Assembly (NCBI GenBank): GCA_019240215.1
Contig: JAFAYQ010000027.1
Span: forward strand, 1-64,000
From: Actinomycetota bacterium
GTDB lineage: Bacteria; Actinomycetota; Actinomycetes; Streptosporangiales; Streptosporangiaceae
Direction: 5' to 3'
Length of the DNA: 64,000 nt
A model generated the notes under the pieces. It had not been told where the DNA came from and ran no database searches. It saw only the letters and a program-made list of their open reading frames with translations. The position numbers and the translations under genes were made by a program. Each line of letters begins with the position of its first letter. The stretch's first letter is position 1. Positions 1 through 64,000 of the stretch are shown piece after piece.

Positions 1-357
1 GTCGACGAACGCGCCGACGTCCGCGACGCGGTCCTTCAGGAGGTAGCCGACTCCGGCGGCGCCCGAGAGCGTAAGCTCGCGCGCATACAGCGGCTCGACG
101 TACTGGCTGAGGACCAGGACGGGCATGCCCGGCCGCCTGGCCCGCGCGCCGATGGCCGCCACCAGGCCCTCGTTGGTGAACGTGGGCGGCATCCGGACGT
201 CCATGATCACGACGTCGACCGGGGCCCGATCGGCCAGCGCCTCGGTCAGCTCGGCCGGGTCGCCGACCTCGGCCACCACGTCGAAGTCGTGCGCCCGCAG
301 CAGCCGGGCCAGCCCGTCCCGCAGCAGCGTCAGGTCTTCGGCGATGACAACTCGCAC
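1..357 (-). CDS. NarL/LuxR-type response regulator receiver domain (3' end cut by window edge)
   Basis: Reverse-strand reading from GTG at 357: VRVVIAEDLTLLRDGLARLLRAHDFDVV...DVVIMDVRMPPTFTNEGL...VLVLSQYVEPLYARELT...GVGYLLKDRV; overlaps the 3' end of the upstream kinase gene. Confidence 0.9.
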   Translation of the reverse strand, partial: MRVVIAEDLTLLRDGLARLLRAHDFDVVAEVGDPAELTEALADRAPVDVVIMDVRMPPTFTNEGLVAAIGARARRPGMPVLVLSQYVEPLYARELTLSGAAGVGYLLKDRVADVGAFVD

Positions 358-1391
358 GGCACCTCCATGGTGACGGTGGTGGGGCCACCGGGCGGGCTGC
401 TGATGGCCAGCGTGCCGTCGAAGGTCTCCAGCCGCCCGGCCACCCCGAGCAGCCCGGTGCCGCCGTCGAGGCGGGCGCCGCCGAGCCCGTTGTCGCCGAC
501 GGTGACCGACAGCAGGCCATGGTCGTGCCGCAGGCCGACCGTGGCGGCCGTCGCCCCGCTGTGCTTGACCACGTTGGCCAGGCACTCGGCGGCGGTGAAG
601 TAGACCGCCGACTCGACCGGCACCGGCGGCCGCCCGGCCAGCGTGCCGCTGACCGTCACCGGCACCGCCACGTCCAGCGCCAGCGCCCGGATCGCGCCTT
701 CCAGCCCGCGGTCGGCCAGCACCGGCGGCTGGATGCCGCGCATCACCGTGCGCAGGTCATCGAGGGCGGCCAGCGTGGTCGAGCGGGCCTCGATCAGCAG
801 CCCCGGCAGCTCGTTGGGCTTGCTGGCCAGCAGCGACTCGGCCAGGCCGAGGCTCATCGCCACCGACACCAGCCGGGCCTGGGCGCCGTCGTGCAGGTCC
901 CGCTCGATCCGCTGCAGCTCGGCCGCCTGGATGTCGAGCGCGCCCCGGCGGGTGCGGGTCAGCACGTCCACCCGGTCGGTCAGCGCCTGCTCGCGCTCGG
1001 CCGACCGGTTCCGCACCATCCAGACGTGCAGCGCCAGCAGCACGCTGAGGCCGAGGATCGGCCACACCGGCCAGAAGTAGTGGAACCCGGCCAGCATCCA
1101 GATGACCAGGAACATCACCGCCAGCGCGAACGACACCGACAGATGCAGGGCCAGGAACCGGCGCCCGCGGGGGACCCGCAGGCCCCACAGCGCGGCCGCT
1201 TGCAGCCAGAGCGGCACCCCCAGCCCGAACCAGACCCAGGCCGGCCAGAAGTGCCCGTGGGCCCCGGTCAGCGCCCACCCCAGCGCGAGGCCGCCGCCGA
1301 TGACCAGGGAGATGAACGCCTCGAGACGCCACAGCGTCCGCCAGACGGCGTACGGCCGCGCGGCGCGGCCAGGCTGGGCGTCGACGCTCAC
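330..1391 (-). CDS. Two-component sensor histidine kinase (HisKA_3 type)
   Basis: ORF 330..1475; likely start GTG at 1391; TM segments then RIERDLHDGAQARLVSVAMSLGLAE H-box and C-terminal ATPase region (VGDNGLGGARLDGGTGLLGVAGRLE). Confidence 0.9.
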   Translation of the reverse strand: MSVDAQPGRAARPYAVWRTLWRLEAFISLVIGGGLALGWALTGAHGHFWPAWVWFGLGVPLWLQAAALWGLRVPRGRRFLALHLSVSFALAVMFLVIWMLAGFHYFWPVWPILGLSVLLALHVWMVRNRSAEREQALTDRVDVLTRTRRGALDIQAAELQRIERDLHDGAQARLVSVAMSLGLAESLLASKPNELPGLLIEARSTTLAALDDLRTVMRGIQPPVLADRGLEGAIRALALDVAVPVTVSGTLAGRPPVPVESAVYFTAAECLANVVKHSGATAATVGLRHDHGLLSVTVGDNGLGGARLDGGTGLLGVAGRLETFDGTLAISSPPGGPTTVTMEVPCELSSPKT

Positions 1392-1453
1392 GTAACCGAC
1401 GATAAACGACCTCGCGGTGACCGGCGATCTTCCCGGCCGCCAGCGCATCAAAA

Positions 1454-1470
1454 GTGGGGTTAACCCCCAC
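1454..1470. promoter_or_regulatory. GTGGGGTTAACCCCCAC palindrome upstream of histidine kinase gene
   Basis: Near-perfect palindrome 63-79 bp upstream of the inferred start at 1391; similar element at 34154-34173. Confidence 0.6.
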
Positions 1471-1642
1471 CGCAAGATGGGTGACAGTCCCCTGGTGACT
1501 GTCAGAGGTCGCCCATAGCGTGGCTTATGTGCGTTACGGCCGATGATTTGGGGCCGCGGCGCCGGTCGGACCAGATGTAAATGAGATGCGCGGAATACCG
1601 GCCGCGAGGCACGGTGTTCTCAAGGCTCGAACGGGGGCAAGG

Positions 1643-2779
1643 ATGATCGCGATCGTGTGGGCGCTGAGCGCGGCCGTGCTCTACGGTACGGGCGCCGCGC
1701 TGCAGCAGCATCAGGCGGCCGCCGCGCCGGACCGGGCGGCGGGGCGCCCTGGTCTGCTCCTGCTGCTGATGCGCCGTCCGTGGTGGCTGCTGGGCATCGT
1801 CGCCGAGATCGGCGGCTTCGCGACCCACGCCTTCGCGCTGAAGTCGGGGCCGCTGACCGTGGTGCAGCTGCTGCTGGCCTCCTCGCTGGTGTTCAGCGTC
1901 GGTACCGTGCACCTGCGGTCCGGGCGCTGGCCGAGCCGGGCCACCTGGGCCGCGGTCGCCGCCGTGGTCGCCGGTCTCGGCTCGTTCGTCGCGCTGACCG
2001 CGCCGGCCCTGGCTCACGCCCACGACGGTTCGTCGCGGTCCGGGCTGGCCGCGCTCGGCCTGGCCGCCGCCGCGCTGCCGTTCGCGGCGATCGGGCTGTT
2101 CAGCCGGGACCGCCGCCGGGCGGTGCTGCTGGCCATCGGCGCCGGCCTGGCCGACACCGGCGTCGCCGTGGTCACCATGGCCTTCACCCACTCGCTGGGC
2201 CACGGCCTGGGCGGCATGCTGACCTCGTGGCCGGCCTACGCGCTGGCCATCGGCGGCCCTTGCTCGCTGCTGCTGACCCAGACCGCCTACCAGGCCGGCC
2301 GCCCGATGATCTCGCTGCCCGTCATCACCGTGGTCAGCCCGCTGGCCAGCCTGGCCGTCGGGATCGGCCTGCTCGGTGAGACCACCAAGCTGACCGTGCT
2401 CAGCGCGACCGGGGCCGGCCTGGCCGTCCTGGTCGCCGGAGCGGGCCTGCTCAGCCTGGCCCGCACCGCCTCGATCCCGGCCGCGGCCGTCCAGCCCGCT
2501 ACCGCGCCCGCTACCCCGCCCGCTCCCGGCCTGGTGCCCGACCCGGAGCCGGCCCCCCGGTGGCGGCCGGCCATCCTGGGCGTCATGCGTCCCCTCGCCG
2601 TCCACTCCGCCCACGCGGCCCGGCTGGCCTTCGGCAGCCTGGCGTTCTGGGCCTACCCGGCCTGGGGCACCAGCCCCTACTGGGAGTCGATCCCGCCGGC
2701 CGGCCCGGCTGAGGCCCGGCCCGTCGCCTCGCCCTACCCGCACCGGCCACCGGCCCACACCGGGCCCCTGGCCCACTGA
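1643..2779 (+). CDS. EamA/DMT-like multi-TM transporter
   Basis: MIAIVWALSAAVLYGTGAALQQHQ... repeated hydrophobic segments; Pro-rich C-terminal tail. Confidence 0.75.
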   Translation: MIAIVWALSAAVLYGTGAALQQHQAAAAPDRAAGRPGLLLLLMRRPWWLLGIVAEIGGFATHAFALKSGPLTVVQLLLASSLVFSVGTVHLRSGRWPSRATWAAVAAVVAGLGSFVALTAPALAHAHDGSSRSGLAALGLAAAALPFAAIGLFSRDRRRAVLLAIGAGLADTGVAVVTMAFTHSLGHGLGGMLTSWPAYALAIGGPCSLLLTQTAYQAGRPMISLPVITVVSPLASLAVGIGLLGETTKLTVLSATGAGLAVLVAGAGLLSLARTASIPAAAVQPATAPATPPAPGLVPDPEPAPRWRPAILGVMRPLAVHSAHAARLAFGSLAFWAYPAWGTSPYWESIPPAGPAEARPVASPYPHRPPAHTGPLAH

Positions 2780-33084: not shown

Positions 33085-34146
33085 ATGGCACGCCGGGTGG
33101 ACGCCGAACTGCTGCTGGTGGGGAGCCTGCCCGCCGACTCGACCGAGGCGGCGCTGCGCTCGGCGGCCGGGTTCTTCGGCGACCTGGTGTTCGCGCTGCC
33201 GGACGGGGAGACCGGTCCCCGGGCGGGCTGGGTCAGCTACGAGCGCGAGCGCCTGGCCCGCCCGAACCCGGACGTGGTGGTGGTCCAGGAGACCGAGTCG
33301 CCGACCGGGCTGCCCCGGCACGCCTACGAGACCCCGGTGTTCGGCATCCGCCCCGGCGTCAGCGCGCTGCACTGGGACCGCTGGCCCCGCATCGACGACG
33401 CGATCGCCGGCTACCAGGTGTTCTCGGCGCTGCGGGCCGACGGCGTGATCCCCGCCCACGTCCGGTTCCAGGTCGGGCTGCCGTTCCCGGCCAGCGCGCT
33501 GAACGCGTTCAAGGCCGACTTCGCGGCCGACTACCCGGTCGCCGCCCGCGGGTTCGAGGACCTGGTCGGCCGCGAGCTGACCCGGCTGACGGCCGCGATC
33601 CCGCCCGCCGACCTGGCCATCCAGTGGGACATGGCCTACGAGACCCAGGACCTGGAGGGCGTGCTCGCCTGGACCTCGGAGGGAGCCTGGGAGCGGTTCG
33701 CGGGGCCGGTCACCCGGCTGACCCGGCAGATCCCGGCCGAGACCCTGGTCGGCTACCACCTCTGCTACGGCACGTTCCCCGAGTGGCCCATGTACGAGGC
33801 CCGCGACCTCGGCCTGCTGGTCCGGATGGCCAACTTCGCGGTGGCCAGCTCGGGCCGCCCGGTCGACTGGCTGCACCTGGCCGGTCCCCGCTACCTGCGC
33901 AGCGAGGACCGGTCGTTCTTCCGCCCGCTGGTCGACCTGGAGCCGGGCGACGCCCGGGTCTTCCTCGGCATCGTGCTGCCGATCGACGGGGTGGCCGGGC
34001 TGCGCCGGCGGCACGACACCGCCGCTCGCTACCTCGACGACTTCGGGGTCGCCATGTACTGCGGGTTCGGCCGCCAGCCGGGGGCCGACGGCACCGAGAC
34101 CATGCGCGACCACGCCGCCGTGGTCCGCACCGTGCACGGAGCCTGA
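33085..34146 (+). CDS. UROD/MetE-like superfamily hypothetical protein
   Basis: MARRVDAELLLVGSLPADSTEAALRSAAGFFGDLVFALPDGETGPRAGWVSYERERLA...AIQWDMAYE...VGYHLCYGTFPEWPMYE. Confidence 0.65.
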   Translation: MARRVDAELLLVGSLPADSTEAALRSAAGFFGDLVFALPDGETGPRAGWVSYERERLARPNPDVVVVQETESPTGLPRHAYETPVFGIRPGVSALHWDRWPRIDDAIAGYQVFSALRADGVIPAHVRFQVGLPFPASALNAFKADFAADYPVAARGFEDLVGRELTRLTAAIPPADLAIQWDMAYETQDLEGVLAWTSEGAWERFAGPVTRLTRQIPAETLVGYHLCYGTFPEWPMYEARDLGLLVRMANFAVASSGRPVDWLHLAGPRYLRSEDRSFFRPLVDLEPGDARVFLGIVLPIDGVAGLRRRHDTAARYLDDFGVAMYCGFGRQPGADGTETMRDHAAVVRTVHGA

Positions 34147-34153
34147 CCGCCGT

Positions 34154-34173
34154 GGGTGGGGTTAACCCCACCC
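34154..34173. promoter_or_regulatory. GGGTGGGGTTAACCCCACCC perfect palindrome upstream of histidine kinase gene
   Basis: 20-bp perfect palindrome 58-77 bp upstream of the inferred GTG start at 34231. Confidence 0.65.
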
Positions 34174-34230
34174 CGGTTACGGGGGTACGGGCGATGGCCG
34201 GCCGCGTCCGCGCTGACTAGCGTCGCTGTT

Positions 34231-35481
34231 GTGTTCCTGCTCCCCGGCCTGGTCGCGCCCCGCACCTGGCTTGCGTTCGTCCACCACCTGGCGGGCCTGC
34301 TCGTCGGGGTGGTGGCGTTCCTGGTCCTCGGCTACGGCCTGACGTTGGGTGCTGCCTTTTTGCCGGTGGCGCTGGCCGGGCTGGTCCTGTTCGGCTTGAC
34401 GCTCCGGTTCGCCGACCAGCTGGCGGCGGCCGAGCGGGCCCGGTTCGCGGTACTGCTGGGTGAGCGGATCCCGGCCTGGCCGGCCACCGTCGGCGGCCGG
34501 TTCCGCTGGCTGTTCGTACCCCGCCGGGCCACCCTGACCGGCCGCCGGACCTGGGCGGGAGTCGGCTACGGGCTGCTCCGGCTGCCGGTCAGCGGCGTGT
34601 TCGCGGTCGCGGTGATCGGCCTCTGGGCGTCCGGCCTGGTCCTGCTGACGCTGCCGCTGTACGGCCGGCTGCTGCCAGGCGGCGGGCCCACCATCGCCGG
34701 CACCGTGCTGGCCGGTCCGTTCCCGACCGCGGGACTGGCCGTGGCCGGCCTGTTCCTGCTGATGGCGGCGCCGCCGGTCACCCGCGGGCTGGCGGTCGCC
34801 GACGTGGCCCTGGCCCGGCGGCTGCTGGGCCCGCCCGACGACCTGGCCGCCCGGGTCACCCAGCTCGAGGTCAGCCGCGAACGGGTGATGGACGCGGCCG
34901 AGACCGAGCGCCGCCGCATCGAGCGCGACCTGCACGACGGCGCCCAGCAGCGGCTGGTCGCGCTGACGATGGAGCTGGGCCGGGCCCGGGCCAAGTTCGT
35001 CGACGACGTCGACGCCGCCCGCGACCTCGTCGACCAGGCCCACGCCGAGGCCAAGGCCGCCCTCACCGAGCTGCGCAACCTGGTCCGGGGGATGCACCCG
35101 CCGGTGCTGACCGACCGCGGCCTCGACGCGGCCCTGTCGGGGCTGGCGGCGCTGTGCCCGGTGCCGGTCGAGGTGCAGGTCGACGTGCCGGTCCGGCCGC
35201 GGGCGGCGGTCGAGGCGGTCGCCTACTTCACCATCGCCGAGGCGCTCACCAACGTGGCCAAGCACTCGCGGGCCACCCACGCGCGGGTGGTGGTCGAGCA
35301 GCACGGCTATCCGGGCACGCTCACGGTGGTGGTCAGCGACGATGGGATCGGCGGGGCCGACCCGGCCGGGGCCGGGCTGTCCGGCCTGGCCGACCGGGTA
35401 GCCGGGGTGGACGGGACGCTGGCGGTCGAGTCGCCGGCCGGCGGCCCGACGATGATCTCGGCGGTGCTCCCGTGCGGCTAG
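34231..35481 (+). CDS. Two-component sensor histidine kinase (HisKA_3 type)
   Basis: TM segments then ETERRRIERDLHDGAQQRLVALTMELGRARAKF; VVSDDGIGGADPAGAGLSGLADRVAGVDGTL. Confidence 0.93.
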   Translation: MFLLPGLVAPRTWLAFVHHLAGLLVGVVAFLVLGYGLTLGAAFLPVALAGLVLFGLTLRFADQLAAAERARFAVLLGERIPAWPATVGGRFRWLFVPRRATLTGRRTWAGVGYGLLRLPVSGVFAVAVIGLWASGLVLLTLPLYGRLLPGGGPTIAGTVLAGPFPTAGLAVAGLFLLMAAPPVTRGLAVADVALARRLLGPPDDLAARVTQLEVSRERVMDAAETERRRIERDLHDGAQQRLVALTMELGRARAKFVDDVDAARDLVDQAHAEAKAALTELRNLVRGMHPPVLTDRGLDAALSGLAALCPVPVEVQVDVPVRPRAAVEAVAYFTIAEALTNVAKHSRATHARVVVEQHGYPGTLTVVVSDDGIGGADPAGAGLSGLADRVAGVDGTLAVESPAGGPTMISAVLPCG

Positions 35482-36113
35482 TTATCGCCGAGGACTCGGT
35501 GCTGCTCCGCGAGGGGCTGACCCGGCTGCTGGCCGAGGCCGGCCACGAGGTCGTCGCGGCCGAGGGCGACGCCGAGAAGTTTCTGCGGGCGGTGGCGGCC
35601 ACTGTCCCCGACGCCTGCGTGGTCGACGTCCGGATGCCGCCCACGTTCACCGACGAGGGGCTGCGGGCGGCGCTGCTGGTCCGCGACCGCTGGCCCGGGG
35701 TCGGCGTGCTGGTGCTGTCGCAATGGGTGGAGGAACGCTACGCCACCGAGCTCATCGCCGACCGCCCGCACGGGGTCGGTTACCTGCTCAAGGACCGGGT
35801 GTCGGATGTCGAGGAGTTCCTCGACGCGCTCGGCCGGGTGGCCGCGGGTGGCAGCGTGCTCGACCCCGAGGTCGTCGGCCAGCTGCTGGCCCGCAGCCGG
35901 AGCCCGCTGGGGACGCTGACCCCCCGCGAGCGCCAGGTGCTGGCGCTGATGGCCGAGGGCCTGGCCAACGCCGCCATCGCCAACACTCTGGTGGTCGGCG
36001 GCGGCGCGGTCGAAAAGCACATCAACAGCATCTTCACCAAGCTCGGCCTGGAGCCGGGCGAGCGGGACCACCGGCGGGTGCTGGCGGTCCTGCGCTACCT
36101 GGGGACGGGGTGA
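35472..36113 (+). CDS. NarL/LuxR-type response regulator
   Basis: VRLVIAEDSVLLREGLTRLLAEAGHEVV...CVVDVRMPPTF...YLLKDRV...LTPRERQVLALMAEGLANAAIANTLVVGGGAVEKHINSIFTKL; 10-bp overlap with kinase gene. Confidence 0.94.
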   Translation: MRLVIAEDSVLLREGLTRLLAEAGHEVVAAEGDAEKFLRAVAATVPDACVVDVRMPPTFTDEGLRAALLVRDRWPGVGVLVLSQWVEERYATELIADRPHGVGYLLKDRVSDVEEFLDALGRVAAGGSVLDPEVVGQLLARSRSPLGTLTPRERQVLALMAEGLANAAIANTLVVGGGAVEKHINSIFTKLGLEPGERDHRRVLAVLRYLGTG

Positions 36114-36889
36114 CCGCCGTGCTGCCGATGACCCCGGCCCGCCGGGTCTGGCTGGCGTTCGGGGTGCCGGTCTGCCTGGTCGTGGTCGGCTGGATCGGCC
36201 TCAACCTGGTCGCGCTGACCGGCCAGGGCTCGTTCGGCGTCAGCCACCCCATCCCGGCCCGCACCGGGCGGGTGAGCGTGACCTTCAGCTCCGGGGACGT
36301 CCACTTGCGACCGGCGGCCGGGGAAACGGCCGGGCTGACCGGCACCGCCCACTACAGCCTGGTCCGGCCCCGGTTCACCACCCGGGCGACCGCGGCCGGC
36401 ACCGACTTCGGCTACCACTGCGATCTCCCGTTCGGCGACTGCGACCTGGACGCGACCGTCAGTGTCCCGCCGGGGACGGCCGCCGCGGTCCGCACCGGGG
36501 GCGGCGACGCCTCCGTCACCGGCACCACCGGAGACGTCAGCCTGAGCACCGACGGCGGGACGGTGTCGGCCGACGAGGTGTCCGGTGACCTCACCCTGGC
36601 CACCGACGGCGGTGACGTCACCGCCAGCGCGGTCACCGCCGGCCGGGTCTCGGCCAGCACCAGAGGCGGCCGGGTCACGCTGCGGTTCACCCGGGTGCCG
36701 GCCGACGTCAGCGTCAGCACCGGCGGTGGCGACATCACGATCGTGCTCCCGCCCGGCGATACCCACTACCGGCTGACCGAGCACTCCAACGGCGGCACGG
36801 CCTCCGCAGGGGTCCCGACCGACTCGTCCTCCCCGAACGTGATCACCGCCCTCAGCGACGGCGGCGACATCAGCGTCAGCCAGTCGTGA
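36110..36889 (+). CDS. DUF4097-like beta-repeat membrane-anchored protein
   Basis: GTGA overlap with RR stop; N-terminal TM then TGDVSLSTDGGTVSADEVSGDLTLATDGGDVTASAVTAGRVSASTRGG. Confidence 0.85.
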   Translation: MTAVLPMTPARRVWLAFGVPVCLVVVGWIGLNLVALTGQGSFGVSHPIPARTGRVSVTFSSGDVHLRPAAGETAGLTGTAHYSLVRPRFTTRATAAGTDFGYHCDLPFGDCDLDATVSVPPGTAAAVRTGGGDASVTGTTGDVSLSTDGGTVSADEVSGDLTLATDGGDVTASAVTAGRVSASTRGGRVTLRFTRVPADVSVSTGGGDITIVLPPGDTHYRLTEHSNGGTASAGVPTDSSSPNVITALSDGGDISVSQS

Positions 36890-59919: not shown

Positions 59920-60190
59920 TCGAGAAATTTCCGGATAAGAGCAACCCGGCCGGCCCTCGGCTCCGAATAAACCCTGAGGCCTGAGTTGCGGCGCCCTCGG
60001 CGCGATGCTGTTGGTGACCGAAAGGGGGCAGTCGATTACGGAATGTTGATTAAAAAGCGTGACGCGGGCAACGTCGGCTGGTAGCTGAGCGTCACACATA
60101 AAACGCTGATAAAGGGCAAGAAGGGCGGTCGGCCGTTCGGTTAGGGGCGGTGACCTGCGACAACTCCTGGGGGGGAGAGCAATAGAAATT

Positions 60191-63100
60191 ATGCCAACGA
60201 CTGACAAAACCGACCGGCACGAGGTGCCGCTGTCCTACGAGCAGGAGCAGCTGTGGTTTTCCCACCGGCTGCAGCCGGACGCTCCGCTGGACCACGAGTG
60301 CGTGGTGGTGACGTTCCCGGCCGGGGAGATCGACACCGGGGCGCTCCGCCAGAGCCTGGATGCGTTCACCGCCCGGCACGAGCTGTGGCGGACCGTTTTC
60401 CCCCGGGCCGATGACGGGACCGGCGGTCCCGTGCAGGTGGTGCGGCCGTCCGGCCAGTTCACCTGGTCGGAGCTGGACCTGAGCGACCGGTCCAGTCCCG
60501 ACGCCGACGCCGAGGCCCGGCGGCGGGTCGAGGAGGAGGCCCAGCAGCCTTTCGACCTGGTCGCCGGGCCGCTGGTGCGGGCCCTGCTGGTGCGCTTCCG
60601 CGCCGACCGGTACCGGCTGTACCTGACCTTGCACCGCATCGTCTCCGACTGGGGCTCGCTGACCGGGATCTTCCTGCCCGAACTGCAGGCTCTCTACGAC
60701 GCCACCCGCGAGCGGTACCCGGCTGACCTGCCCAAGCTGGAACGGCAGTACGCGGACTACGCCCAGTGGCAGCGGAGCCGCCCCGGGGCCGAACGGGCCG
60801 AGCAGCTGCAGTTCTGGAAGCACTACCTGGCGGGCGCGCCCGCCGCGCTGGAGCTGCCGTCTGACCACCGGCGGCCGGAGCGGCCCGAGCAGCGGGCCGG
60901 GGTCGAGACGTTCACGCTGGACGCCAAGCTGGCGGCCGGGCTGCGTGAGCTGAGCGAGCGCGAGCAGGTGACGCTGACGGCGACCCTGACGGCGGCGCTG
61001 GCCACATTGCTGCACCGCTACACCGGGCAGGAGGACCTGCTCATCGGGACGTTCCCGGAGCGCGGGCCCGGCCCGCTGGCCCGGCCGATGGTGGGCTGCC
61101 ATCCCAACACCGTGGTGCACCGGTCGGACCTGGCCGGGCAGCCGTCCACCAGCGAGCTGCTGCGCCGGACCGAGGCCGTCCGCCAGGCCATCGCCGCGTA
61201 TCAGACGGTGCCGTTCGACGCGGTGGTCAAGGAGCTGCGGCCCGAGCACAGCCCCGGCCGCCCGCCGCTGGTCCAGGTGGCGCTGTCGGTCGTGCCGGCC
61301 ACCGCCGCCGCCGGCACGTCGCTGGCCTCGCGGGCCGCCTGGGCGCTGGCGCGGGTGGGGCAGGACGCCCCCGCGCCCAAGTTCGACCTGCTGGTGGAGG
61401 TGGAGGAGCGGCCGGGGGGCCTGGCTGGCCGGTTCGTCTACCATCGCGGGCTGTTCGCGCCGGAGACGATCCGGCGGATGGCCGGGCACTGGCGGATGGT
61501 GCTCGAGGGCATGGTGGCACGGCCGCAGCAGCCGGTCACCGAGCTGGAGCTGCTCACCGGCCCCGAGCGCACCCAGCTGCTGGAGCAGTGGAGCGCCGGC
61601 GGCCCGGCCCCGGCCGGCCCGGACGTGGCCGAGCTGATCGAAGCGCAAGCCCAGCGCAATCCCGGCGCGGTCGCCGTCGTCTGCGACGACGTGCAGCTGA
61701 GCTACCAGGAACTGCGGCAGCGGGCCCGCCAGCTCGCCCGCTACCTGCGCGCGAACGGCGTCGGGGCCGGGGTGACGGTGGGGGTGTGCCTGGAGCGGTC
61801 GGTCGAGCAGGTGGTCGCGCTGCTGGCCATCTTCCTGGCCGGCGGCGCCTACGTGCCCGTCGACCCGGCCGCCCCGGCCGAGCGGATCCGGTTCGTCACC
61901 GGCGACGCCGACCTGGCGCTGATGCTGACCCAGGCCCGGCTGCGGGAACGGGTGGAAGGGACCGGGGCCAAGGTCGTGGTCCTGGCCGACGCCGAGGTGG
62001 CGGCGACCGCCGGGCCCGGCCAGGACGACCCCGGCCAGGAAGAGCCGGCCGCCAGCCAGGCCGCCTACGTCATCTACACCTCCGGCTCGACCGGGCGGCC
62101 CAAGGGGGTGGTGGTCGAGCGCGGGGCGCTGTCGGCCCACTGCCGCACGATCATCGCCGAATGGGGCCTGACCCCGCCCGACCGGGTCACCAACTTCAGC
62201 CAGTACAGCTTCGACGCCTCGCTCGAGCAGATCCTGCCGCCGCTGGCGGCCGGGGCCCGGCTGGTCATGCGGGGCGAGGAGATCTGGTCGCCCCGGCAGC
62301 TGCTCCACCAGCTGCGCAGCCAGCAGGTGACGGTGCTGATCCTGCCCGCCGCCTACTGGCAGCAGGCGGTCCGTGAATGGGCCCAGACGCCGGGCGGGCT
62401 GGCCGGCACCCGGCTGCGGCTGGTGGTCTCGGGCGGTGAGCAGCTGAGCCGCCAGGTGCTGCAGCAGTGGCCGGGGCTCGGCCGGCCGGAGACCCGGCTG
62501 CTGAACGTCTACGGGCCGACCGAGACCACGATCACCGCGACCATGGCCGACATCAGCCCGGACGACGAGTGGATCACGATCGGGCGGCCGCTGCCCGGCC
62601 GGACCGCCTACATCCTCGACCATCGGCGCCGGCCGGTCCCGGCCGGCGTGGTCGGCGAGCTCTACATCGGCGGGGGGCTGCTGGCCCGCGAGTACCTGAA
62701 CCGGCCCGAGCTGACCAGCGAGCGCTTCGTACCGGATTCGGTCACCGGGCAGCCGGGCGCCCGGCTGTACCGGACCGGCGACCGGGCCCGGCACCTGTCC
62801 GACGGGCGCATCGAGTACGCCGGCCGGGCCGACCAGCAGGTCAAGATCCGCGGTTACCGGATCGAGCTCGGCGAGGTCGAAGCGGTGCTGGCCCAGCACC
62901 CCGGGGTCGCCCAGGCGGTGGTGGTGGCCCGGCCGGACCGCCGCGGCCCCGAGCTGGCCGCGTTCGTGGTCGCCCGCCCCGGAGCCGAGCTCGACCAGGA
63001 GGCGGCCCGCCGGTTCCTGCGCGACCGGCTGCCGGCCTACATGGTGCCGCCGGTGATCGAGCCGCTGGCCGAGATGCCGTTCCTGGCCTCGGGCAAGCCC

Positions 63101-64000
63101 GACCGGCGGCGCCTGCTGGAGATGCCGCTCCAGCACGCCCGGTCGGGCGAGCGCCACGTCCCGCCCCAGCGGCCGCTGCACCGGGAGCTGGCCGCCATCT
63201 GGGAGGAGCTGCTCGACACCCGGCCGATCGGGATCACCGACAACTTCTTCGACCTCGGCGGTCACTCGCTGCTGGCGGCCCAGCTGATCGACCGGATCGA
63301 CCAGCGCTACGGGAAGAAGGTGGCGCTGTCGGAGCTGTTCGGCAAGCCGACGATCGAGCAGCTGGCCGACGAGCTCGAGGACCGGACCGAGCGGGCGGAG
63401 GAGCAGGTGCCGCCGGTGAAGCTGCGGCCGGTTCAGGAGTCCGGCACCCGGACGCCGTTCTTCTTCCTGCACGGAGACTGGACCGGGGGTGCCTTCTACT
63501 GTTACGCGCTGGCCCGCGCCTGCGGCCCCGACCAGCCGTTCTACGTGCTCGAGCCGTACGTGTTCGGCGATCGGGACGAGGTCCGCGACCTGGAAGCGGT
63601 GGCCGCCGCCCACCTGGACGCGATCCGGGCGGTCCAGCCGCACGGCCCTTACCGGCTGGGTGGCTTCTGCAACGGCGGGCTGCTGGCCTATGAGATGGCG
63701 CGCCAGTTCGCGGCCGACGGCGAGCAGGTGGAGTTCCTGGGGCTGGTCAACCCGTCGCCGCCGTTCCAGCAGGACCGGGTCCAGGCCGTGACCGACCGGC
63801 TGAGCGAGCTGTTGCGGATCCCGGCGGCCGCCCAGGTGACCGGGTACCTGCGCACCCGGCAGGCCCTCCGGCACGTCTACCGGCGGTTGCGGCCGGGCGG
63901 CTCCCGGGTCGAAGATTTCGAGAAGCTGCTGGTGGTCGAGCCCCGGCTGGCGGCGATGGTCCCACCCCGGCCGGCTCTGTACCGGGACTACGTCGGGGTG
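60191..64000 (+). CDS. NRPS single module: condensation (degenerate), adenylation, PCP, thioesterase; 3' end beyond window
   Basis: MPTTDKTDRHEVPLSYEQEQLWFSHRLQP (C1); LTLHRIVSDWGSL (degenerate C3); YVIYTSGSTGRPKGVVVE (A3); NVYGPTETTITAT (A5); YRTGDRAR (A7); DNFFDLGGHSLLAAQL (PCP); FFFLHGDWTGG...YRLGGFCNGGLLAYEMARQF (TE). Frame open to base 64000, so absent from the supplied track. Confidence 0.95.
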   Translation, partial: MPTTDKTDRHEVPLSYEQEQLWFSHRLQPDAPLDHECVVVTFPAGEIDTGALRQSLDAFTARHELWRTVFPRADDGTGGPVQVVRPSGQFTWSELDLSDRSSPDADAEARRRVEEEAQQPFDLVAGPLVRALLVRFRADRYRLYLTLHRIVSDWGSLTGIFLPELQALYDATRERYPADLPKLERQYADYAQWQRSRPGAERAEQLQFWKHYLAGAPAALELPSDHRRPERPEQRAGVETFTLDAKLAAGLRELSEREQVTLTATLTAALATLLHRYTGQEDLLIGTFPERGPGPLARPMVGCHPNTVVHRSDLAGQPSTSELLRRTEAVRQAIAAYQTVPFDAVVKELRPEHSPGRPPLVQVALSVVPATAAAGTSLASRAAWALARVGQDAPAPKFDLLVEVEERPGGLAGRFVYHRGLFAPETIRRMAGHWRMVLEGMVARPQQPVTELELLTGPERTQLLEQWSAGGPAPAGPDVAELIEAQAQRNPGAVAVVCDDVQLSYQELRQRARQLARYLRANGVGAGVTVGVCLERSVEQVVALLAIFLAGGAYVPVDPAAPAERIRFVTGDADLALMLTQARLRERVEGTGAKVVVLADAEVAATAGPGQDDPGQEEPAASQAAYVIYTSGSTGRPKGVVVERGALSAHCRTIIAEWGLTPPDRVTNFSQYSFDASLEQILPPLAAGARLVMRGEEIWSPRQLLHQLRSQQVTVLILPAAYWQQAVREWAQTPGGLAGTRLRLVVSGGEQLSRQVLQQWPGLGRPETRLLNVYGPTETTITATMADISPDDEWITIGRPLPGRTAYILDHRRRPVPAGVVGELYIGGGLLAREYLNRPELTSERFVPDSVTGQPGARLYRTGDRARHLSDGRIEYAGRADQQVKIRGYRIELGEVEAVLAQHPGVAQAVVVARPDRRGPELAAFVVARPGAELDQEAARRFLRDRLPAYMVPPVIEPLAEMPFLASGKPDRRRLLEMPLQHARSGERHVPPQRPLHRELAAIWEELLDTRPIGITDNFFDLGGHSLLAAQLIDRIDQRYGKKVALSELFGKPTIEQLADELEDRTERAEEQVPPVKLRPVQESGTRTPFFFLHGDWTGGAFYCYALARACGPDQPFYVLEPYVFGDRDEVRDLEAVAAAHLDAIRAVQPHGPYRLGGFCNGGLLAYEMARQFAADGEQVEFLGLVNPSPPFQQDRVQAVTDRLSELLRIPAAAQVTGYLRTRQALRHVYRRLRPGGSRVEDFEKLLVVEPRLAAMVPPRPALYRDYVGV

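What the first reader, a model, noticed from the sequence alone, without database searches (positions are those of the whole stretch)
1454..1470. Palindrome GTGGGGTTAACCCCCAC upstream of kinase 1 matches one upstream of kinase 2
Seen directly: GTGGGGTTAACCCCCAC at 1454-1470 (63-79 bp upstream of the likely kinase start at 1391) and GGGTGGGGTTAACCCCACCC at 34154-34173 (58-77 bp upstream of the likely start at 34231). The two kinase/response-regulator pairs are paralogous and 33 kb apart. Inference: shared or cross-talking autoregulatory operator bound by the NarL-type response regulators.
Basis: partly seen in the sequence, partly recalled or inferred. Interest (0 to 1): 0.62.

Follow-up and report, generated by a model that had tools for sequence, protein, structure and literature searches.

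The report
Shared control site before kinase genes
A rare 18-letter mirror-image DNA sequence in front of two sensor-kinase gene pairs is conserved across actinobacteria and is most likely the docking site by which such a pair's regulator switches on its own genes, a Toastrack (envelope-stress-type) protein gene and neighbouring transporter genes; the exact regulon is new, the type of control is ordinary.

Summary
The two sites exist at the stated coordinates. Genome-wide, TGGGGTTAACCCCA with at most one mismatch occurs at only three places, all intergenic and beside two-component genes.

In relatives it lies upstream of PF13796/HisKA_3 kinase plus NarL-type regulator operons, upstream of unlinked DUF4097 (Toastrack) genes, and in promoters shared with ABC or MMPL transporter genes. 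In the window, kinase 2, its regulator and a DUF4097 gene form one apparent operon. A matrix trained only on DUF4097-gene sites finds the kinase promoters (14 of 30, about 0.003 expected per promoter). A TAnnGT -10 element sits 53-55 (or 67) bp from the operator centre, suggesting an activator position near -66.

"Autoregulatory operator bound by the NarL-type regulators" is well supported. "Shared or cross-talking" is only plausible: the kinase-1 site is asymmetric, its orthologues have GGG(G/A)GTTAACCCC, and regulator 1's recognition helix differs. The kinase-1 site also faces a divergent transporter promoter at +54. This is a new regulon of a known kind; no binding data exist here.

The parts
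34154..34173 (.). Operator 2: perfect palindrome GGGTGGGGTTAACCCCACCC, full match to GGTGGGGnTAnCCCCACC
   Evidence: matrix score 30.4, highest in the window
34218..34223 (+). -10-like element TAGCGT, 54 bp from the centre of operator 2, 7 bp before the GTG start (leaderless transcript inferred)
   Evidence: distance conserved across operators
34231..35481 (+). Kinase 2: PF13796 sensor + HisKA_3 + HATPase_c
35472..36113 (+). Regulator 2: receiver + GerE (NarL-type) DNA-binding domain, recognition helix GGGAVEKHINSIF
36110..36889 (+). DUF4097 Toastrack protein; its start overlaps the stop of regulator 2 (same apparent operon)
   Evidence: the same family sits behind unlinked copies of the operator in relatives
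1454..1470 (.). Operator 1: GTGGGGTTAACCCCCAC, imperfect palindrome between two divergent promoters
   Evidence: matrix score 14.8, second highest in the window
1399..1404 (-). -10-like element TATCGT of kinase 1, 57 bp from the centre of operator 1
   Evidence: same sequence and distance in congener G001
330..1391 (-). Kinase 1: HisKA_3 kinase without a recognised PF13796 sensor
1..357 (-). Regulator 1, receiver part only; the DNA-binding domain is lost because the contig starts at window base 1
1516..1521 (+). -10-like element TAGCGT facing the DMT transporter gene, 54 bp from the centre of operator 1
   Evidence: same sequence and distance in congener G001
1643..2779 (+). DMT family transporter, divergent from kinase 1, proposed second target of operator 1
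   Evidence: NCBIfam DMT_1 78.9 bits, cut-off 50

Best explanation
The palindrome is the binding site of a NarL-type response regulator dimer, centred about 66-70 bp upstream of the start of leaderless transcripts. The regulator encoded with kinase 2 binds GGTGGGGnTAnCCCCACC upstream of its own operon (kinase 2, regulator 2, DUF4097 Toastrack protein) and, when phosphorylated, activates it from a class-I-like position: a positive feedback loop for an envelope-stress-type response. Operator 1 is the equivalent element of the paralogous pair 1; it lies between two divergent promoters, kinase 1 and a DMT transporter, and probably serves both. Shown: the motif, its rarity, its conservation, the target genes and the spacing. 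Inferred: which protein binds, that it activates rather than represses, the signal, and any cross-binding of the two regulators.
For: Only three genome places, all intergenic beside two-component genes. Conserved upstream of homologous kinases found by protein similarity alone: a matrix trained only on 13 DUF4097-gene sites scores >=10 in 14 of 30 kinase promoters, one such score in 105 kb of background. The same operator precedes unlinked DUF4097 genes in relatives, while in the window, Kineosporia and Nonomuraea DUF4097 lies in the kinase/regulator operon. TAnnGT lies 53-55 bp (15 cases) or 67 bp (8 cases) from the operator centre and at most once at any other distance. Framed palindromes in 32 of 66 kinase promoters against 25 of 2022 control windows. 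The inner half-site goes with the regulator's recognition helix (16 of 20 against 1 of 12, Fisher 1.3e-4; post hoc).
Against: No binding or expression data. Many homologous kinases have no recognisable GTGGGG palindrome (16 of 30 score below 10). The overall helix-to-operator distance test is not significant (Mantel p about 0.18). A minority of sites precede genes with no obvious link, such as small membrane protein genes in Streptomyces.
Confidence: 0.75

Rival explanations
1. The palindrome is bound by a different transcription factor, for example an orphan or global regulator, that controls these kinase, DUF4097 and transporter genes; the adjacent regulators bind elsewhere.
For: Some sites are not next to a kinase/regulator pair (Streptomyces small membrane proteins, Catenulispora ABC genes). 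Binding was not measured.
Against: Paralogous pairs carry different inner sequences in the same frame at the same place, as expected of cognate regulators. The motif is strongly tied to this kinase/regulator family.
Confidence: 0.15
2. Pair 1 and pair 2 use separate operators that merely look alike: operator 1 is read only by regulator 1 and there is no cross-talk. This is compatible with the best explanation and concerns only the reader's 'shared' claim.
For: Kinase-1 orthologues have a different palindrome. The recognition helices differ, DKA or AKA against GGG. Operator 1 scores 15 against 30 for operator 2.
Against: Operator 1 contains an intact GTGGGGTTAACCCC stretch that the site of congener G001 lacks, and G001 has no clear kinase-2 orthologue.
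Confidence: 0.55
3. The palindromes are hairpin terminators of upstream genes.
For: Operator 2 begins 8 bp after the stop codon of the gene at 33097-34146, and several DUF4097-gene sites follow the adenosyltransferase stop closely.
Against: Operator 1 lies between two divergent genes. There is no T-tract and no terminator call at either palindrome. The distance to the downstream -10 is fixed.
Confidence: 0.03
4. Chance similarity between two GC-rich palindromes.
For: Matches of this length exist by chance in very large collections.
Against: Expected 0.19 in the window against 2 found; conservation, spacing and target genes.
Confidence: 0.01

Closest known systems
LiaFSR / VraTSR envelope-stress systems of Firmicutes
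   Same: HisKA_3-type kinase, NarL-type regulator and a Toastrack/DUF4097 partner in one locus (PMC11237479)
   Different: No LiaF-type membrane gene seen here, a PF13796 sensor instead, a different operator; LiaS and LiaG family cut-offs are not reached
BldM homodimer and BldM-WhiI heterodimer sites of Streptomyces (PMC4125116)
   Same: A 16-bp palindrome bound by a NarL/FixJ-class regulator in an actinomycete; paralogous regulators can share a half-site
   Different: Consensus TCACCCGnnCGGGTGA; orphan atypical regulators of sporulation, not kinase-paired autoregulation
DevR(DosR), VraR, DesR, NarL regulators
   Same: Closest solved relatives of regulator 2 over receiver and DNA-binding domains
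   Different: Low similarity (best E 3.4e-16); different operators and regulons
MadR family response regulators (NCBIfam NF047785)
   Same: Best NCBIfam match of regulator 2 (90.6 bits)
   Different: Far below the family cut-off of 300 bits, so not a member

Membership tests
Autoregulatory operator of a NarL-type two-component regulator | Inverted repeat in the promoter of the kinase/regulator operon, conserved in orthologues | tested here: met
Autoregulatory operator of a NarL-type two-component regulator | Fixed position relative to the -10 element | tested here: met
   53-55 or 67 bp from the operator centre
Autoregulatory operator of a NarL-type two-component regulator | Cognate regulator binds it and transcription depends on it | not testable with these tools
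   needs EMSA, footprint, reporter assays
   kinase-1 orthologues carry GGG(G/A)GTTAACCCC(A/C)CT, kinase-2 homologues GGTGGGGnTAnCCCCACC
   regulator 1 is truncated in the window; its orthologues have TDKAIDKH or TAKAVDKH against GGGAVEKH
LiaFSR-type system | HisKA_3 kinase, NarL-type regulator and Toastrack protein in one operon | tested here: met
LiaFSR-type system | Scores above curated LiaS / LiaG family cut-offs | tested here: not met
   40.7 against 450 bits; 18.7 against 285 bits
MadR family | Score above the curated cut-off | tested here: not met
   90.6 against 300 bits
Intrinsic terminator | GC-rich stem-loop followed by a T-run downstream of a gene | tested here: not met
   no terminator called at either palindrome; operator 1 is not downstream of any gene

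The most novel reading that the evidence does not exclude
A large actinobacterial family of PF13796/HisKA_3-NarL pairs uses one operator frame, GGT-N12-ACC, whose inner bases are read by the residue just before the A(V/I)xKH motif of the recognition helix (small residue: GGGG; arginine: GTG or GTAC), so that regulons could be predicted from protein sequence. The asymmetric operator 1 would be a composite site where two paralogous regulators meet, possibly as a heterodimer, above a divergent transporter promoter.
Probability: 0.3. Interest if true: 0.65.

Novelty: new member of a known kind. Interest (0 to 1): 0.52.

Why it matters
These kinase/regulator pairs are abundant in actinobacteria, and the searches made here found no described operator or regulon for them. 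The site gives a testable operator, a predicted target set (Toastrack protein, ABC, MMPL and DMT transporters) and a fixed promoter geometry, which makes the function of an uncharacterised envelope-type signalling family directly testable in culturable relatives.

Tried and rejected
Exact TTAA palindrome as the motif: too narrow, the centre varies. GTDB-wide exact scan as proof: about 90 hits in 257 Gb, many outside actinobacteria and near a rough chance expectation; only the actinobacterial subset is informative. Looser matching in the own genome gave mostly chance hits, fewer than the reversed control, and those inspected lie in coding sequence. Terminator reading: rejected. Overall Mantel test of helix against operator distance: not significant. 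Literature searches for the motif: no paper describing it found. Rfam on the window: nothing.

Full report
Observation. Operator 2 (34154-34173) is a perfect 20-bp palindrome. Operator 1 (1454-1470) has one extra C in an arm. Two matches with at most 3 mismatches in 64 kb are above chance (0.19 expected). In the whole assembly the core with at most one mismatch occurs three times, always between genes. The third place, C7:7438, lies between a receiver-only gene and a LuxR/AAA gene next to another kinase/regulator pair, and carries a second inverted copy 38 bp away.

Genes. Kinase 2 is a PF13796 sensor/HisKA_3 kinase. Regulator 2 is a receiver plus GerE protein. A third gene overlapping the end of regulator 2 encodes a DUF4097 Toastrack protein. 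Kinase 1 is a HisKA_3 kinase. Its regulator is truncated because the contig begins at window base 1. The divergent gene at 1643 is a DMT transporter.

Related sequences. A protein search with kinase 2 in 40 relatives, with no use of the motif, returned kinases whose promoters contain GGTGGGG-N4-CCCCACC variants. The pattern GGTGGGGnTnnCCCCACC was then sought in 151 family genomes: 51 have it, well above the reversed control. The palindromic nTAn sites fall into three classes. The first is upstream of kinase/regulator operons, often between rho and rpmE. The second is upstream of a DUF4097 gene next to cobalamin adenosyltransferase; in genomes with both classes on one contig the two sites are about 18-38 kb apart. 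The third is upstream of another kinase pair, several of them divergent from ABC transporter genes. Pfam confirms DUF4097, MMPL, ABC, Rho and adenosyltransferase. Exact GTDB hits in Kineosporia and Nonomuraea have kinase-regulator-DUF4097 operons like the window, and Solirubrobacterales hits precede transporter-kinase-regulator operons. In a wider sample of 395 genomes of the class the exact palindrome is sparser (20 genomes), again partly at kinase and DUF4097 genes.

Independent test. A matrix trained only on 13 DUF4097-gene sites scores at least 10 in 14 of 30 kinase promoters found by protein similarity alone; one such score occurs in 105 kb of background. The window sites score 30.4 and 14.8, the two highest in the window.

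Promoter geometry. Over 115 flanks of non-redundant operators, TAnnGT occurs at 53-55 bp from the operator centre 15 times, at 67 bp 8 times, and at most once at any other distance. Operator 2 has TAGCGT at +54, just before the GTG start. Operator 1 has TATCGT at +57 towards kinase 1 and TAGCGT at +54 towards the DMT gene; both are conserved in the congener G001 with identical spacing. The fixed distance puts the operator centre near -66 to -70, the usual place for an activator. The step from position to activation is inference.

Which protein binds. Among 66 kinase/regulator pairs fetched by protein similarity, 32 have a GGT-N12-ACC palindrome in the kinase promoter against 25 of 2022 control windows. 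The inner bases differ between paralogues. Regulators with G, S or A before the A(V/I)xKH motif mostly go with xGGG half-sites (16 of 20). Those with R go with GTG or GTAC (1 of 12 has xGGG; Fisher 1.3e-4). This split was chosen after inspection, sequences are related, and an overall distance test was not significant, so it is suggestive only.

Shared or not. Two true orthologues of kinase 1 exist (73% and 67% identity). Their sites are AGGGGGTTAACCCCCCT and CGGGAGTTAACCCCACT, and their regulators carry TDKAIDKH and TAKAVDKH, unlike GGGAVEKH of regulator 2. Operator 1 is therefore best read as the pair-1 operator that resembles the pair-2 consensus on one arm. Cross-binding is possible but not demonstrated.

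Comparison with the known. The arrangement works like the Lia/Vra systems: kinase, NarL-type regulator and a Toastrack partner (PMC11237479). Curated family cut-offs for LiaS, LiaG and MadR are not met, so membership is not claimed. BldM/WhiI give a precedent for a palindromic regulator site and a heterodimer site (PMC4125116). No paper with this operator was found in the library; most subscription papers are not covered.

Verdict. A real, conserved operator of a known kind with an apparently undescribed regulon.

Noticed in passing
window 1482-1504: Second inverted repeat, TGACAGTC-N7-GACTGTCA, between operator 1 and the -10 of the DMT gene; part of it (TGTCACCC) is conserved in the congener G001.
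   Followed up: partly
window 1527-1580: A possible leaderless 17-codon reading frame (MCVTADDLGPRRRSDQM) starts 6 bp after the TAGCGT element, followed by a leader before the DMT gene; no Rfam match.
   Followed up: no
L004 7399-7452 (G000:C7): Two inverted copies of the motif, 38 bp apart, between a receiver-only gene and a LuxR/AAA regulator gene: a third candidate target in the genome.
   Followed up: partly
L007, L017, L026, L069, L074, L342, L343, L346: In Streptomyces the same palindrome lies near a gene for a small 68-88 aa membrane protein and a 36-39 aa protein, with no kinase nearby; unexplained.
   Followed up: no
L057, L065, L068, L094: In Catenulispora relatives the palindrome lies upstream of an ABC transporter ATPase gene.
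   Followed up: no
L332, L252, L258, L253, L309: A paralogous group of kinase/regulator pairs with TERAV or SERAV helices has GGGTGTACCTAGGTACACCC-like palindromes in the kinase promoters.
   Followed up: partly
window 60092-64000: Long overlapping open frames on both strands at the window end; the + frame begins like a peptide-synthetase condensation domain (VPLSYEQEQLWF).
   Followed up: no
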